Assembly: GCA_938023075.1 (NCBI GenBank)
Contig: CALHDG010000141.1
Span: forward strand, 1 to 41,219
DNA from: an uncultured Chitinophagales bacterium
Lineage (GTDB): Bacteria > Bacteroidota > Bacteroidia > Chitinophagales > JAHDHT01
Direction of reading: 5' to 3'
DNA length: 41,219 bases
Shown: positions 612 to 39,915 of the stretch, in pieces
How positions within the stretch are numbered: the first letter of the stretch is position 1
How the letters are laid out: each line of letters begins with the position of its first letter
Notes under the pieces: generated by a model
Seen by the model: only the letters and a program-made list of their open reading frames with translations
What the model was told of the DNA's origin: nothing
Databases searched by the model: none
Program-made: the position numbers and the translations under genes

Positions 612-650
612 CAAAAAAAGCACAACCGCTACGCTCCCTTTTTGGTGCTT
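612..650 (-). terminator. Rho-independent terminator of the reverse transcriptase gene
   Basis: Read on the minus strand, AAGCAC (650-645) pairs with GTGCTT (623-618) around a GC-containing loop and is followed directly by a run of T (plus-strand A run 613-619). It lies about 30 bp past the RT stop codon, which fits the end of that transcript. Confidence 0.6.
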
Positions 651-679
651 CGCTGGTTATTCAGTTTCGGTAAAAAACA

Positions 680-2164
680 TTATTTTGAATTTGAAAACTC
701 ATACTTGCGTAAAGTCTTTTGTAATATTTTCCAATGATTTCTTAATTGCCGTTTAATTTCAGGAGCATTCATTTCATTGGCGGCTTTATAGGCGTAGGTT
801 AAATAATTTCCTCTGTATTTTCTTTCAAAGGTTTTTACAACTAACTTTCCGTTTTTATAAGTAGATTTCTTAGTTGGAATCATTCTCTTCTTTTCACCTT
901 TAAAACTAAACAAGCGATAGATTTTTCTTTTGAAAATTGGGGTTTCATCTAATAAATGTTTTTCCTTAATCTTTTCGGCTCGTCTATGTTTTCGTCTTAC
1001 AGCATCTTTCATTTTTCTATAAAATGAAGCTAAATTTTTGGACTTAATTAAAGTTTGATAGCCGTAGAATTCAAAACCTAAATAGTTAAACGGTACATTC
1101 TTAACTAATTCACCATTTTTAATTCCGTAAGATTGCAATTTGCCGTTATCCTTTTTAAAATGTATTTCTTCCGTTTTTTCCATTGCAATGTTTAGCTCAA
1201 TTTTGTCTATTTGTTGAGCAAAAAAATCTTTAACCTGCTGAATTTGATTTTCATCACAAACAATTATCATATCGTCAGAATATCTTCTATAATAAACATT
1301 TTTAAGCTGATTTATTATGGCTTCATCAAATGGTAACATATACATATTAGCTAACAAAGCACTAACCGGTAAGCCGTGCGGAATGCCAACCAAATTGTCA
1401 TTTAGCCTATATTGATTCTTGTAGATAGTTATACCAGAATCTAAAAAATCCTTTATATCATAAAAAAAACAGTTTTTATTTTGAAGTCTTAGTTTGGCTA
1501 ACTTTTTCTCATCAAATTGACCATTATATTTTCTCAAATCGGATAATCGTATGTATGAAAATTTTGTAATTGATTTAAATATATTATAATGGTCTTTTGG
1601 TAAAGATTTGCAACCTAAAATTTTAGCCCAAATTAATTTCAACTTTTTATGGTTCAAGCTTGGAAAAAAATTCTTGATGTCAAATGCTAAAACAACACAA
1701 TTTTCTCTTTTCTTTATTTCTTCAAACACATCATTGGCAAAATGAATATTATTTTTATTTCCTAAACCATTTTCTTTTTTAATGCGCCTGTAAGCCGTAA
1801 CTGCATTTGAAAGTTCCACATTTTGAGCAAGGTATTTTTCATATTGTGGTGAGATAAGAACTTTGGCATAATAGGAATAGATAAGTGCATCAATATGCGT
1901 TGGGTAGTGAATATCTCTCAGTTTTGTATTTGAAATAATTTTACCATCCTTTTCGGTTTTATGAGCACGAATAGAATTTCCGTTTAACTTACTTAACTTA
2001 TACCTTCTTTGCTTTAGTTGCTTAAAAATTAATGGAGTAAAAGAATGTTTAGCAATGTTAACAGGATTAGAAATATACTTTGTTAGGGAAGCTTTTAAAT
2101 AAGCAGGTGTTTTATTTGTTATATGTACATAACCTCTATTTTTAAACCAATCTATTTCGTTCAT
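680..2164 (-). CDS. Reverse transcriptase, Abi/UG (defence-type) group
   Basis: A 494-aa RNA-directed DNA polymerase. Visible motifs: FDIKNFF at residues 161-167 (first catalytic Asp 162, motif A), GIPHGLPVSALLANMYM at 260-276 (motif B), YSDD at 295-298 (motif C), then NYLGFEF and KSKNLASFYRKM in the thumb region. The basic C-terminal 100 residues resemble a nucleic-acid binding tail. There is no maturase domain, HNH domain or surrounding intron structure, so it is not a group II intron protein. The YRRYSDD and SFYRKM patterns fit the so-called unknown-group or Abi-like reverse transcriptases, several of which are phage-defence (DRT) enzymes. Which class cannot be decided by eye. Motif B has PHG where most RTs have PQG. 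The ATG at 2164 opens straight into typical sequence (WFKNRGYVH). The gene stands alone, divergent from a 211-aa gene, with a structured 370-bp region upstream. Confidence 0.9.
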   Translation of the reverse strand: MNEIDWFKNRGYVHITNKTPAYLKASLTKYISNPVNIAKHSFTPLIFKQLKQRRYKLSKLNGNSIRAHKTEKDGKIISNTKLRDIHYPTHIDALIYSYYAKVLISPQYEKYLAQNVELSNAVTAYRRIKKENGLGNKNNIHFANDVFEEIKKRENCVVLAFDIKNFFPSLNHKKLKLIWAKILGCKSLPKDHYNIFKSITKFSYIRLSDLRKYNGQFDEKKLAKLRLQNKNCFFYDIKDFLDSGITIYKNQYRLNDNLVGIPHGLPVSALLANMYMLPFDEAIINQLKNVYYRRYSDDMIIVCDENQIQQVKDFFAQQIDKIELNIAMEKTEEIHFKKDNGKLQSYGIKNGELVKNVPFNYLGFEFYGYQTLIKSKNLASFYRKMKDAVRRKHRRAEKIKEKHLLDETPIFKRKIYRLFSFKGEKKRMIPTKKSTYKNGKLVVKTFERKYRGNYLTYAYKAANEMNAPEIKRQLRNHWKILQKTLRKYEFSNSK

Positions 2165-2489
2165 AATAAAAAGTAAAAAAGCTCTCGCAAGGATTTATAG
2201 CGAAATAAAATGTAACATCTTTTATCAAGAATGAACCGTTAGCCGAGTTCTCGACTCCCTTTGAATCTTTACATTAATACGACAATATCATTAATACTTA
2301 TAATTCTAAATATCATGAAATTAATCATTATCTTTGCTGGACAAGCCAGTAGTCAATTGACTGCTGGCTTGCAATACAAGCCTCCTAATCCACATATTTT
2401 ATTTATCCCCAAAGGTCTGAATTAAGTGATACAGTAAAAACTGATACAACAGTTCAACAAATATTTTATTTCTATTAACTAAAGAACTT
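2165..2489 (-). ncRNA. Candidate structured RNA upstream of the reverse transcriptase
   Basis: The divergent spacer is unusually long and holds several inverted repeats. The main one is a 30-bp near-perfect palindrome at 2342-2371 (arms starting CAAGCCAGTAGTC, one G/T mismatch); smaller hairpins (CGAG-TT-CTCG, GAGT/ACTC) lie at about 2233-2253. Retrons and the DRT2 and DRT9 defence RTs use a non-coding RNA encoded next to the RT, on the same strand. This spacer is in the right place for such an RNA, but no conserved structure was recognised and no TAnnTTTG promoter was found for it. The call is an inference from position and palindromes only. Confidence 0.25.
2342..2371. repeat. 30-bp near-perfect palindrome
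   Basis: Two 15-base arms meet without a spacer; only one position is mismatched and it would form a G-U pair in RNA. There is no T-run on either side, so it does not look like a terminator. It is the strongest hairpin in the spacer between the RT gene and the 211-aa gene. Confidence 0.75.
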
Positions 2490-2505
2490 TTTTACATTTG
2501 TAAAA
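2490..2505 (+). promoter_or_regulatory. Promoter -7 box inside a perfect 16-bp palindrome
   Basis: TTTTACATTTGTAAAA is a perfect dyad (arms TTTTACA, TT centre). It contains TACATTTG (2493-2500), a full match to the Bacteroidota -7 box TAnnTTTG, 40 bp upstream of the ATG at 2540. A repressor bound here would block the promoter. The TACAnnTGTA core also resembles BlaI/MecI operators. Confidence 0.55.
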
Positions 2506-2539
2506 GTAATCATTTTCATTTTTACACATAAATTTTATT

Positions 2540-3175
2540 ATGCCTAAAGTTAATGCCTTCAATATTGGCGAGATAGTTACATTAAAATCACATCCTCTAC
2601 TTGAAAGTTACACTCCAAAAAATAACGAAAAACAATTTCCTCCACTTTTGTTGATTAAAGAAGCTCTTGTTGAGAATAAAAAGAAAAAATTATTTAGCGA
2701 TGAAATCCCAAAAGCAAAAATTGCAGATAATTTAAAATATATCTGTATTTATTTTAATGATAAAAAAAGCGAATTTGTTGAAGTTGCTTTGTACCATGCT
2801 TATTTATCAAATTATATGAATTTAAAGTTCAATAGAGAATTAGATGAAGATGGAAAAGAAACTAAAAGTGAAACAAATCTAATTGATGAGGTTAAAGGTT
2901 ATGAACCAGTAAAATATGAGTTTGGTGCACTTGCTCAATTAAAAACCTGTAAGTTGGAAAATAGAAATAAATATTGTAAAATTTTTTGTTCTCCGAATTT
3001 TATATTAACAGGTATTAAAAGAGAAATTTCAGATGGTTTGTTTTATTATGATGGGAAGCCTAAGAGAAAAGTTTCAGAGATATTTTATAAGGTAATGTGG
3101 TTTAATCATTACCAAAATAAGTTTAGCGAAAAATATTTGCCTAATGAGTTTTTTATTGAGCCTTTAGATTTATAG
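2540..3175 (+). CDS. Unknown soluble protein, 211 aa
   Basis: Not recognised. The protein starts MPKVNAFNIGEIVTLKSHP, a beta-rich opening like small SH3-like or KOW-like barrels that begin with GEIVTLK; that resemblance is weak. It is lysine- and glutamate-rich, has a charged linker at about residues 98-118, several aromatic residues in the C-terminal half, and no signal peptide or membrane helix. The ATG at 2540 is preceded by a TAnnTTTG promoter inside a palindrome, so it has its own and probably repressed promoter. It is divergent from the reverse transcriptase and followed by degraded toxin-antitoxin sequence, so it lies in an accessory patch. A partner role with the RT is possible but unsupported. 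Confidence 0.75.
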   Translation: MPKVNAFNIGEIVTLKSHPLLESYTPKNNEKQFPPLLLIKEALVENKKKKLFSDEIPKAKIADNLKYICIYFNDKKSEFVEVALYHAYLSNYMNLKFNRELDEDGKETKSETNLIDEVKGYEPVKYEFGALAQLKTCKLENRNKYCKIFCSPNFILTGIKREISDGLFYYDGKPKRKVSEIFYKVMWFNHYQNKFSEKYLPNEFFIEPLDL

Positions 3176-4849: not shown

Positions 4850-7756
4850 TTATAAGTTAGCAGTTGCATAAGCCTCCACCGGTGGGCAAGTACAAACTAC
4901 ATTTTTATCACCGTAAGTATTATCAATTCTGGCAACACTTGCCCAAAATTTTGTAGCGGTCAACGTTTCAACAGGATAAGCCGCTTTTGTTCTGCTATAA
5001 GGTAAATCCCAATCATCTTGACTAAGCAAAGCCAGCGTATGAGGGGCATTGTTTAATACATTATGTTGTTGCTGTGCTACACCAGTAGCTACCTCCTCAA
5101 TTTCTTTTCTAATTTCAATCATGGCATCACAAAAGCGGTCAATTTCTTGCAAGTCTTCGCTTTCGGTTGGTTCAATCATAATAGTACCGGCTACGGGCCA
5201 GCTCATGGTTGGCGCATGAAAAGCATAATCAATTAATCGTTTAGCGACATCTTCCGCATCAATATCAATCGATTTAAAAGGACGTAAATCAATAATTAAC
5301 TCGTGCGCTACCATACCAAATTGCTTACCGGTAAATAAAATATCATAATGGTTTTCTAATCTTGATTTGATGTAGTTGGCACTCAAAATGGCAATTTCGG
5401 TGCTTCGCTTTAAACCTGTTGCACCCAATAATTTTATATAAGCATATGAAATTAGCAGAATGGAAGTACTGCCATAAGGCGCAGCACTTACGGCAGTGAT
5501 TGCCTGCTCACCTCCCGTTTCAACTATTTGATGATTTGGTAAAAAAGGTTTCAACTTTTCGTTTACACAAATTGGTCCCATTCCTGGTCCGCCGCCGCCA
5601 TGAGGAATCGCAAAGGTTTTATGTAAATTTAAATGAACCACATCGGCACCACAAATTGCCGGATTGGTTAAACCTACTTGCGCATTCATATTGGCACCAT
5701 CCATATAAACCAACCCGCCATGTTGATGAATAATTGCACAAATATGTTGAACCTTATCTTCAAAAACTCCGTGTGTTGAAGGATAGGTAATCATTAAACC
5801 TGCAAGATTTTCCTGATGCTCTTTTGCCTTATTTTCAAGATCATCAACATCAATATCTCCATAATCATTACAAGCAACTACCACAACTTGCATGCCTGCC
5901 ATCACAGCACTTGCGGGGTTGGTTCCGTGTGCCGAAGAAGGAATTAAAACAACTGTTCTATTAGTTTGTTGATGTGCTTTATGATATGCTCTGATGACCA
6001 TTAGTCCGGCATATTCTCCCTGAGCACCACTATTGGGCTGCAAAGAACAGGCTGCCATTCCGGTTATGTCACACAAATCTTTTGAAAGCTCCTCGATAAT
6101 TTGTTGATAACCTTTTGCTTGTTCAATGGGAGCAAAAGGATGAAGGTGAGCGAATTCTGACCAACTTAAAGGAATTAGTTGAACGGCAGCATTCAACTTC
6201 ATGGTGCAAGAGCCTAAAGGAATCATGCTGGTGGTGAGCGAAAGATCTTTATTTTCTAAGGATTTAATATAGCGCATCATTTGAGTTTCGGAGCGATGAC
6301 TATTAAAAACCGGATGTGTTAAATAGGCTGATTGACGTTTTAGAGCGTCAGGATAAGCAGGTTTAAATTCCTCAAAAACTCCATTAAAATTAGTAGGTTG
6401 AATACGTTGCTTATCTAAAGCCTCTGCAAATATTTTTTCAATATATTGTATGTGTTCGATGGAGGAACATTCATCTAAACTAATTTGTATACCTTGTTCT
6501 TCATACCAAAAATTAAATTTTTCTGTATCAGCAGTTTGTTTTATTTTTTGAATTTGATCATTACTTAACTCAGTTGTATCAATAAAAAGCGTATCAAAAA
6601 ATGATTTATGTTTAAGATTTAAGCCCAAGCCTGCTAATCTATCTTTTAATGCACTCGTGCGCATATGTATTTGTTGGGCAATAGCTTGCAAACCCTCGGC
6701 ACCATGATAAACGGCATACATAGAAGCCATAATAGCCAATAATGCTTGTGCTGTGCAAATGTTAGAAGTGGCTTTGCCTCGTCGAATATGTTGCTCACGG
6801 GTTTGCAAAGCCATTCGTAATGCCGGTTGCCCATATTGATCTTTAGATAGCCCGATCAATCTGCCAGGAACTCCTCTTAAAAAACTTTCTTTGGTTGCAA
6901 AATAGGCTGCGTGAGGACCTCCATAACCCATCGGAACGCCTAATCTTTGCGTACTACCCACTACCACATCTGCTCCCCACTCACCGGGTGCTTTCAATAA
7001 AGTTAGTGAAAGTATATCCGCTGCTACGGCTATAAAAATGTTTTTTTCAACAGCTTGATTGACTAAAGGTTCATAGTTAATTACCGCTCCTTCTTTATTC
7101 GGATATTGCAATAACATACCATAAATATCTTCATCATTTGGGAGTTCATTTTTATTGGCATCAAACTCTACTACTTTAATTTGTAAAGGTTCTGCTCTTG
7201 TTGTTAACACCGCTTTTGTCTGCGGAAATACATGCTTATCTACCAGAAAAGTGTGCTTCGGATTTTTTCTATTTTTTTTATACGATTGGTTAAAAAGCAT
7301 GATCATTGCTTCGGCAGCGGCGGTTGCTTCATCTAATAAAGAAGCATTGGCAATCGGTAAAGCTGTTAAATCAGCCACTAGGGTTTGAAAATTAAGTAGT
7401 GCCTCCAAACGACCTTGTGAAATTTCTGCTTGGTAGGGCGTGTATTGTGTATACCATCCTGGATTTTCAAAAATGTTTCGTTGTATAACTGCCGGCGTTA
7501 TACAGTTGTAATAGCCCATACCTATGCAAGAGGTGTATACCTTATTGTGCGCGGCTACTTCTTTAAGATGTTCTAAGAGTTGTGCTTCACTTAAAGGATC
7601 AGAAATAGGCAATTCCTTTTGTAAGCGAATATTATCTGGAATAGTTTGATTAATCAATTCGTTGACACTACTTACCCCAATTTGTGATAATAGGTGCTCT
7701 GTATCTTTTTTCTGAATACCAATATGTCGATATTCAAAATTGTATTTTGAATTCAA
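4850..7756 (-). CDS. gcvP: Glycine dehydrogenase (decarboxylating), P-protein of the glycine cleavage system
   Basis: PLP-dependent enzyme that decarboxylates glycine and passes the aminomethyl group to the lipoyl arm of H-protein. This is the long single-chain form with N- and C-terminal halves. Conserved stretches include GMGYYNCITPAVIQRN and NPGWYTQYTPYQAEISQGR near the N-terminus, and NLHKTFAIPHGGGGPGMGP with the PLP-binding lysine (about 5600-5640). The open frame runs up to 7876, but a TACTTTTG -7 box on the minus strand (7786-7779) lies inside that extension. I therefore place the start at the TTG at 7756, giving MNSKYNFEYRHIG and 968 residues, the usual GcvP length. GcvT and GcvH are not in the window. 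It is divergent from miaE. Confidence 0.93.
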   Translation of the reverse strand: MNSKYNFEYRHIGIQKKDTEHLLSQIGVSSVNELINQTIPDNIRLQKELPISDPLSEAQLLEHLKEVAAHNKVYTSCIGMGYYNCITPAVIQRNIFENPGWYTQYTPYQAEISQGRLEALLNFQTLVADLTALPIANASLLDEATAAAEAMIMLFNQSYKKNRKNPKHTFLVDKHVFPQTKAVLTTRAEPLQIKVVEFDANKNELPNDEDIYGMLLQYPNKEGAVINYEPLVNQAVEKNIFIAVAADILSLTLLKAPGEWGADVVVGSTQRLGVPMGYGGPHAAYFATKESFLRGVPGRLIGLSKDQYGQPALRMALQTREQHIRRGKATSNICTAQALLAIMASMYAVYHGAEGLQAIAQQIHMRTSALKDRLAGLGLNLKHKSFFDTLFIDTTELSNDQIQKIKQTADTEKFNFWYEEQGIQISLDECSSIEHIQYIEKIFAEALDKQRIQPTNFNGVFEEFKPAYPDALKRQSAYLTHPVFNSHRSETQMMRYIKSLENKDLSLTTSMIPLGSCTMKLNAAVQLIPLSWSEFAHLHPFAPIEQAKGYQQIIEELSKDLCDITGMAACSLQPNSGAQGEYAGLMVIRAYHKAHQQTNRTVVLIPSSAHGTNPASAVMAGMQVVVVACNDYGDIDVDDLENKAKEHQENLAGLMITYPSTHGVFEDKVQHICAIIHQHGGLVYMDGANMNAQVGLTNPAICGADVVHLNLHKTFAIPHGGGGPGMGPICVNEKLKPFLPNHQIVETGGEQAITAVSAAPYGSTSILLISYAYIKLLGATGLKRSTEIAILSANYIKSRLENHYDILFTGKQFGMVAHELIIDLRPFKSIDIDAEDVAKRLIDYAFHAPTMSWPVAGTIMIEPTESEDLQEIDRFCDAMIEIRKEIEEVATGVAQQQHNVLNNAPHTLALLSQDDWDLPYSRTKAAYPVETLTATKFWASVARIDNTYGDKNVVCTCPPVEAYATANL

Positions 7757-39715: not shown

Positions 39716-39809
39716 AACGAAGCACCGAAGCTGGTAAACTAGCCCCGATTGCAGCGGTATCCTTTTTATGGAGCAGAGCGGAATAAAAAGATTTAGCGGA
39801 AAGCGGGAC
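39716..39809 (+). repeat. Dispersed structured element F, copy 3
   Basis: ACGAAGCACCGAAG and AAACTAGCCCCGATTGCAGC, a hairpin in which CTTTTTAT (39772-area, upstream arm) pairs perfectly with ATAAAAAG, then TTTAGCGGAAAGCGGGACC. The flanks match the 35.3-kb copy, while the stem sequence is different yet still complementary. Confidence 0.75.
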
Positions 39810-39915
39810 CTAAAGTTGGATTGAAAAAACTTGTTCCGCTTCTAATAAAAAAGAGAAAGGGAATACCGAATATTGATTAACGAATGATGATTTTTGAGTT
39901 ATATTAAAAAAGAAA

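What the first reader, a model, noticed from the sequence alone, without database searches (positions are those of the whole stretch)
612..2489. Defence-type reverse transcriptase with a hairpin-rich spacer that may encode its RNA partner
Seen: a stand-alone 494-aa RT with YSDD, a terminator right after it, and a 325-bp upstream spacer holding a 30-bp near-perfect palindrome and smaller hairpins. Known: retrons and DRT2/DRT9-type systems pair an RT with a non-coding RNA from the same strand. Inference: the spacer may encode such an RNA. Motif B has PHG instead of PQG, which could mark a distinct subgroup.
Basis: partly seen in the sequence, partly recalled or inferred. Interest (0 to 1): 0.7.

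Follow-up and report, generated by a model that had tools for sequence, protein, structure and literature searches.

The report
Anti-phage system that builds hidden gene
This is a divergent member of the DRT2 family of anti-phage reverse transcriptases: the 'empty' DNA in front of the enzyme encodes a folded RNA whose centre, when copied over and over, would assemble a hidden endless protein gene, and its relatives always carry a second, unstudied partner gene.

Summary
The RT (680-2164, minus) is real, intact and single-copy. It belongs to the DRT2/UG2 family, but to a divergent Bacteroidota clade. The RNA also carries a DRT2-type hidden gene. A fixed rule sets the template: it starts 7 nt after one conserved stem and ends 13 nt before another. 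Templates of 105-207 nt result, and 22 of 24 are multiples of three with exactly one antisense frame that never meets a stop when concatenated. Seven of 8 loci fetched after the rule was set obey it. The template is flanked mostly by GUA/GUA instead of the ACA/ACA of Klebsiella DRT2. The repeat junction tends to recreate a Bacteroidota-type promoter (TTG ... TAnnTTTR), although the window's own junction promoter is weak. The 30-bp palindrome is this template's version of a conserved hairpin. The divergent gene at 2540-3175 (PADLOC 'RTasYodC', a tandem YodC-like protein) lies next to all 26 RTs of this clade in the tree and none of 24 others. Motif B PHG is private to this window. Verdict: new variant of a known kind; all of it is sequence evidence.

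The parts
680..2164 (-). Drt2-type reverse transcriptase, 494 aa, YSDD
2170..2496 (-). ncRNA (approximate ends, inferred from promoter box and terminal stem)
   Evidence: homologous in 24 loci with covariation
2501..2508 (-). likely promoter -7 box of the ncRNA, TACTTTTA (TAnnTTTR)
   Evidence: TAnnTTTR at matching position in 22 of 24 loci; coordinates
2479..2493 (-). terminal stem P1, 5' strand (pairs with 2173-2188)
   Evidence: covariation; coordinates
2173..2188 (-). terminal stem P1, 3' strand
   Evidence: covariation; coordinates
2463..2472 (-). helix P1b 5' strand (pairs with 2202-2211, 10 of 10)
   Evidence: I9; within-locus pairing beats swapped loci
2202..2211 (-). helix P1b 3' strand
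2447..2457 (-). helix P2 5' strand (pairs with 2229-2238), closes the template-bearing part
   Evidence: covariation; coordinates
2229..2238 (-). helix P2 3' strand
   Evidence: covariation; coordinates
2385..2426 (-). stem-loop P3, template-proximal 5' stem; template starts 7 nt after it
   Evidence: covariation; spacing constant in 16 of 16 loci
2273..2377 (-). predicted reverse-transcription template, 105 nt; GUA-1 at 2375-2377
   Evidence: fixed-edge rule; coordinates
2270..2272 (-). GUA-2, predicted re-annealing triplet after the template
2342..2371 (.). 30-bp palindrome = conserved hairpin in the 5' part of the template
   Evidence: hairpin in 23 of 24 templates
2273..2377 (+). neo repeat unit, frame from 2273: INTTISLILIILNIMKLIIIFAGQASSQLTAGLQY; in-frame ATG at 2315-2317; open across repeat junctions
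2241..2256 (-). scaffold hairpin P4 (AGUCGAGAACUCGGCU); template ends 13 nt before the conserved GGGAGTCG
   Evidence: covariation
2216..2231 (-). scaffold hairpin P5 (approximate)
   Evidence: covariation in the 16-locus alignment
2540..3175 (+). YodC-like partner protein (PADLOC RTasYodC), 211 aa, two similar halves

Best explanation
A divergent DRT2 anti-phage system. The RT binds the upstream ncRNA and reverse-transcribes its 105-nt central template again and again, jumping from GUA-1 at the template's 5' end back to GUA-2 just past its 3' end. After second-strand synthesis the tandem DNA would carry a promoter across each repeat junction and one endless open reading frame on the strand opposite the ncRNA (neo). 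Its repetitive, hydrophobic product would arrest the infected cell. The YodC-like protein is a third component that never seems to be missing in this clade; my guess is that it controls Neo or helps the RT sense infection. Shown by sequence: RT family, structured RNA, template edges, stop-free frame, clade-wide junction promoter signal, strict YodC linkage. Inferred: template jumping, expression, toxicity, phage trigger, any role of YodC.
For: Drt2 is by far the best family. Covarying ncRNA: 38 pairs, 94% formed, 113 compensatory cells against a shuffle maximum of 52; helix P1b. Template edges at constant distance from P3 and P4; 15 of 16 lengths divisible by 3, each with exactly one open antisense frame; 7 of 8 later loci agree. 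Junction promoter elements enriched: TTG in 16 of 24 (shuffle mean 2.6), TAnnTTTR in 8 of 24 (mean 0.4). An ACA-bounded control drt2 gives a 105-nt repeat with one open frame. YodC in 26 of 26 clade members, 0 of 24 others.
Against: No experiment. L003 (172 nt) and L076 (182 nt) break the frame. For the short window template alone an open frame is not rare (21% of shuffles). The window's junction promoter is weak. Edge triplets are not identical in some loci (GAA/GTA, GCA/GTA). Neo sequences evolve fast. NCBIfam Drt2 score is under its cut-off (361.6 against 390). The loci share ancestry and are not independent.
Confidence: 0.8

Rival explanations
1. The RT copies this ncRNA into repetitive DNA that acts as DNA, as in DRT9 (homopolymer) or DRT10 (short non-coding repeats); the open frame is incidental.
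For: Other class 2 DRTs act through non-coding cDNA (PMC12483538, PMC12632851). Neo amino-acid sequence is poorly conserved.
Against: Eight distinct template lengths, all multiples of 3, each with one open antisense frame where shuffles give 0.003-0.04 (0.21 for the window); promoter elements at the junction; every open repeat has an in-frame Met; Drt9 and UG17 family scores are far lower.
Confidence: 0.1
2. The spacer is a cis-acting leader or attenuator that regulates RT expression, not an RT partner or template.
For: It lies directly upstream on the same strand; the structure is closed by a terminal stem next to the RT start.
Against: The unconserved centre keeps reading frame and fixed edges; the architecture (stem, template, 3' scaffold) is that of the DRT2 ncRNA (PMC12039810, PMC11100668).
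Confidence: 0.05
3. The clade works as described, but the window's own copy is decaying: its template has shrunk and it no longer makes a working neo.
For: Close relatives have 171-207 nt. The window junction lacks TAnnTTTR. Private PHG in motif B. Decay exists in the clade: L004 lost the ncRNA, L003 is out of frame.
Against: RT and YodC are intact; all RNA helices, both GUA triplets and the frame are kept. The Psychrobacter drt2 repeat is also 105 nt.
Confidence: 0.15

Closest known systems
DRT2 (UG2) of Klebsiella pneumoniae: RT + ncRNA + neo (PMC11100668, PMC12039810)
   Same: RT family; ncRNA upstream on the same strand; central template between a 5' stem and a 3' scaffold; repeat length divisible by 3; one stop-free antisense frame; promoter elements across the repeat junction.
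   Different: GUA instead of ACA jump triplets; repeats 105-207 nt (published close homologues 111-129); Bacteroidota-type instead of sigma70-type junction promoter; unrelated Neo sequences; an extra YodC-like gene in every member of the clade.
PADLOC RTasYodC (RT-associated YodC-like protein)
   Same: The divergent gene matches this model at 216 bits.
   Different: The model only records the association. Here the association is tied to one monophyletic DRT2 clade and the protein is shown to consist of two similar halves.
DRT9 / DRT10 (UG28 / UG17)
   Same: RT plus ncRNA, repetitive cDNA.
   Different: They make homopolymer or short non-coding repeats; Drt9 scores 55.5 and UG17 81.5 bits here against 441.6 for Drt2.

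Membership tests
DRT2 | RT of the UG2/Drt2 family | tested here: met
   Best family in PADLOC (441.6 bits) and NCBIfam (361.6, curated cut-off 390 not reached), best solved-structure match: a divergent member
DRT2 | structured ncRNA directly upstream, same strand | tested here: met
   24 loci, covariation
DRT2 | template length divisible by 3 with one stop-free antisense frame over repeat junctions | tested here: met
   window 105 nt; 22 of 24 loci
DRT2 | ACA-1/ACA-2 triplets at the template edges | tested here: not met
   GUA/GUA in the window and most of the clade: same geometry, different triplet
DRT2 | promoter assembled across the repeat junction | tested here: inconclusive
   clade: strong enrichment of Bacteroidota-type elements; window itself: weak
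DRT2 | 3' pseudoknot of the ncRNA bound to the RT thumb | not tested
   only nested helices were counted
DRT2 | concatemeric cDNA, Neo toxicity, phage defence | not testable with these tools
   needs experiment
Retron | retron-type RT | tested here: not met
   best retron-model scores 36-39 bits in PADLOC and 56 bits against a cut-off of 235 in NCBIfam
Group II intron | maturase RT within an intron RNA | tested here: not met
   TIGR04416 75 bits against a cut-off of 300; no intron RNA in the Rfam scan
DRT9 | Drt9-type RT | tested here: not met
   55.5 bits against 441.6 for Drt2

The most novel reading that the evidence does not exclude
A three-component DRT2 clade whose RNA-templated toxin gene uses a different template-jump triplet (GUA) and a host-adapted junction promoter, and in which a dedicated tandem YodC-like protein controls or antagonises Neo. 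Jump triplet, repeat length and junction promoter would then be clade-specific, exchangeable parts of one gene-assembly machine.
Probability: 0.45. Interest if true: 0.75.

Novelty: new variant of a known kind. Interest (0 to 1): 0.6.

Why it matters
The DRT2 preprint reports that Neo was hard to annotate outside the Klebsiella-like group and leaves open whether other clades work differently (PMC11100668). Here a simple fixed rule recovers neo in a divergent clade from sequence alone, with an out-of-sample check. It suggests that the jump triplet and the junction promoter change with lineage while the logic stays. It also points to an unstudied protein that accompanies every member of this clade and could regulate Neo.

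Tried and rejected
Motif B PHG as a subgroup mark: rejected, only the window has it. Retron, group II intron and DRT9 readings: rejected by family scores. Viral contigs held no relative; phages only about 30% identical ones. AlphaFold of the YodC-like protein with 4 sequences was poor (pLDDT 54) and its PDB matches (tandem Tudor or SH3-like) are not significant. For DRT2 clades without YodC I looked for template edges by alignment: a UACC/UACC pair keeps four relatives in frame, but too many column pairs pass for this to be evidence. Mestre et al. 2022, which I presume to be the source of RTasYodC, is not held, and no paper found names YodC with these RTs.

Full report
Observation. The ORF at 680-2164 (minus) is a 494-aa reverse transcriptase with YSDD and PHG in motif B. 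The spacer holds the stated palindrome (2342-2371) and folds better than shuffles (z = -2.5). The terminator is not supported. PHG is private to this copy; its relatives have PQG.

Family. PADLOC's best hit is Drt2 (441.6 bits; the best non-Drt2 model is UG17 at 81.5). NCBIfam Drt2 gives 361.6 bits, under its cut-off of 390. A profile of five relatives finds the solved Drt2 chains first (E 3e-67). So this is a divergent DRT2. The search of the window's own genome finds one copy.

Partner gene. The divergent ORF 2540-3175 (plus) is PADLOC RTasYodC (216 bits); it and its relatives match Pfam DUF2158/YodC weakly. Its two halves match each other (hhalign 96%, E 4e-9). In a maximum-likelihood tree of 50 RTs, the window included, the YodC label needs one change only: all 26 members of one branch (support 100/99) have the gene and none of the other 24 does (the script's 'without' list names the window only because its YodC was scored under the identical locus L001). 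In most loci the gene is divergent; in five (L005, L053-L056) it lies upstream on the same strand. I did not establish its function.

Structured RNA. The spacers of the window and 15 RT relatives align with the same elements; eight loci fetched later make 24. Without the template, the 24-sequence alignment has 38 consensus pairs, 94% formed; 21 pairs show compensatory change, 113 cells against a shuffle maximum of 52; every slid version falls to 46% paired or less; alifold energy is -20.5 against -0.2 +/- 0.5 for column shuffles. These shuffles do not keep the relatedness of the sequences; the slid versions do. A further helix, P1b, is misaligned by MAFFT but pairs better within loci than between swapped loci (mean 17.8 against 13.4, maximum 16.0 of 1000 swaps). 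A TAnnTTTR box lies at a near-constant distance before the terminal stem in 22 of 24 loci, which sets the likely 5' end near window 2496.

Hidden gene. In Klebsiella DRT2 the template is bounded by two ACA triplets, its length is a multiple of 3, and its antisense concatemer has one endless frame (PMC12039810, PMC11100668). Here I first placed the edges by eye on a GTA motif, then found that they sit at constant distances: the template begins exactly 7 nt after the 3' strand of stem P3 and ends exactly 13 nt before the conserved scaffold GGGAGTCG (hairpin P4), in all 16 first loci. The edge triplets are GTA/GTA in most. Fifteen of 16 lengths (105 to 207 nt) are multiples of 3 and each of the 15 has exactly one antisense frame without stops; dinucleotide shuffles of the same length have an open frame with probability 0.003-0.04 (0.21 for the short window template). 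The rule was then applied by script to eight loci not used in setting it: 7 of 8 pass. The loci share ancestry, so these are not 24 independent tests; but eight distinct lengths are all multiples of 3. The exceptions are L003 (172 nt, Tenacibaculum finnmarkense; its sister L004 has lost the RNA altogether) and L076 (182 nt).

Junction. At the repeat junction TTG occurs at -26..-21 in 16 of 24 loci (shuffles mean 2.6, max 8) and TAnnTTTR next to the junction in 8 of 24 (mean 0.4, max 3); rotating the circle at random gives the same contrast. From general knowledge, TTG plus TAnnTTTG is the Bacteroidota promoter form; for Klebsiella a sigma70 form is reported. The window's own junction is poor: TTG at -21 and -9, best -7 match TATCATTA.

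Palindrome. Its role in copying is unknown.

Neo. The 22 peptides have 35-69 aa per repeat, are hydrophobic, and each has an in-frame Met. AT-rich DNA may explain part of the hydrophobicity; I ran no control for that. Between close pairs they change quickly, so selection is visible on frame and length rather than on sequence.

Control. Searching ACA pairs before a classical drt2 (Psychrobacter plasmid, L077) gives one in-frame pair, 105 nt, with one open antisense frame.

Novelty. DRT2, neo and the YodC association are known. In the papers held I found no description of GUA jump triplets, Bacteroidota-type junction promoters or neo in this clade; the 2024 preprint says Neo annotation was difficult in divergent clades. 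Its supplementary figures could not be read, so priority is not certain.

Noticed in passing
L004, about 4940-5000: Tenacibaculum dicentrarchi homologue has an intact RT but has lost the whole ncRNA and the start of the YodC-like gene: a deletion that removes both presumed partners at once.
   Followed up: partly
L075: Homologue whose RT is matched in two pieces in different places of the reading (5 TGA, 1 TAG, 6 TAA in the read-through frame), probably frameshifted, while the ncRNA and neo frame are intact.
   Followed up: no
L058, L059, L061, L063 upstream of the RT: Bacteroidota Drt2 relatives without YodC have a repeated UACC that brackets 144-156-nt templates open in antisense in all four: possibly another jump triplet. 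Many other column pairs also pass, so this is only a lead.
   Followed up: partly
window 680-3175 and tree: The window's genome lies in another order than the Flavobacteriales-type genomes that hold most of this clade, yet its RT nests among theirs; this suggests horizontal transfer.
   Followed up: no
window 39737-39814 (+): Flavo-1 RNA (RF01705, 63.4 bits), a Bacteroidota small RNA of unknown function.
   Followed up: no
templates of 24 loci, first 75 nt: A long hairpin is kept at the 5' part of the template with quite different sequences in each locus, although the RT must copy through it and it is also coding. Why is unexplained.
   Followed up: partly
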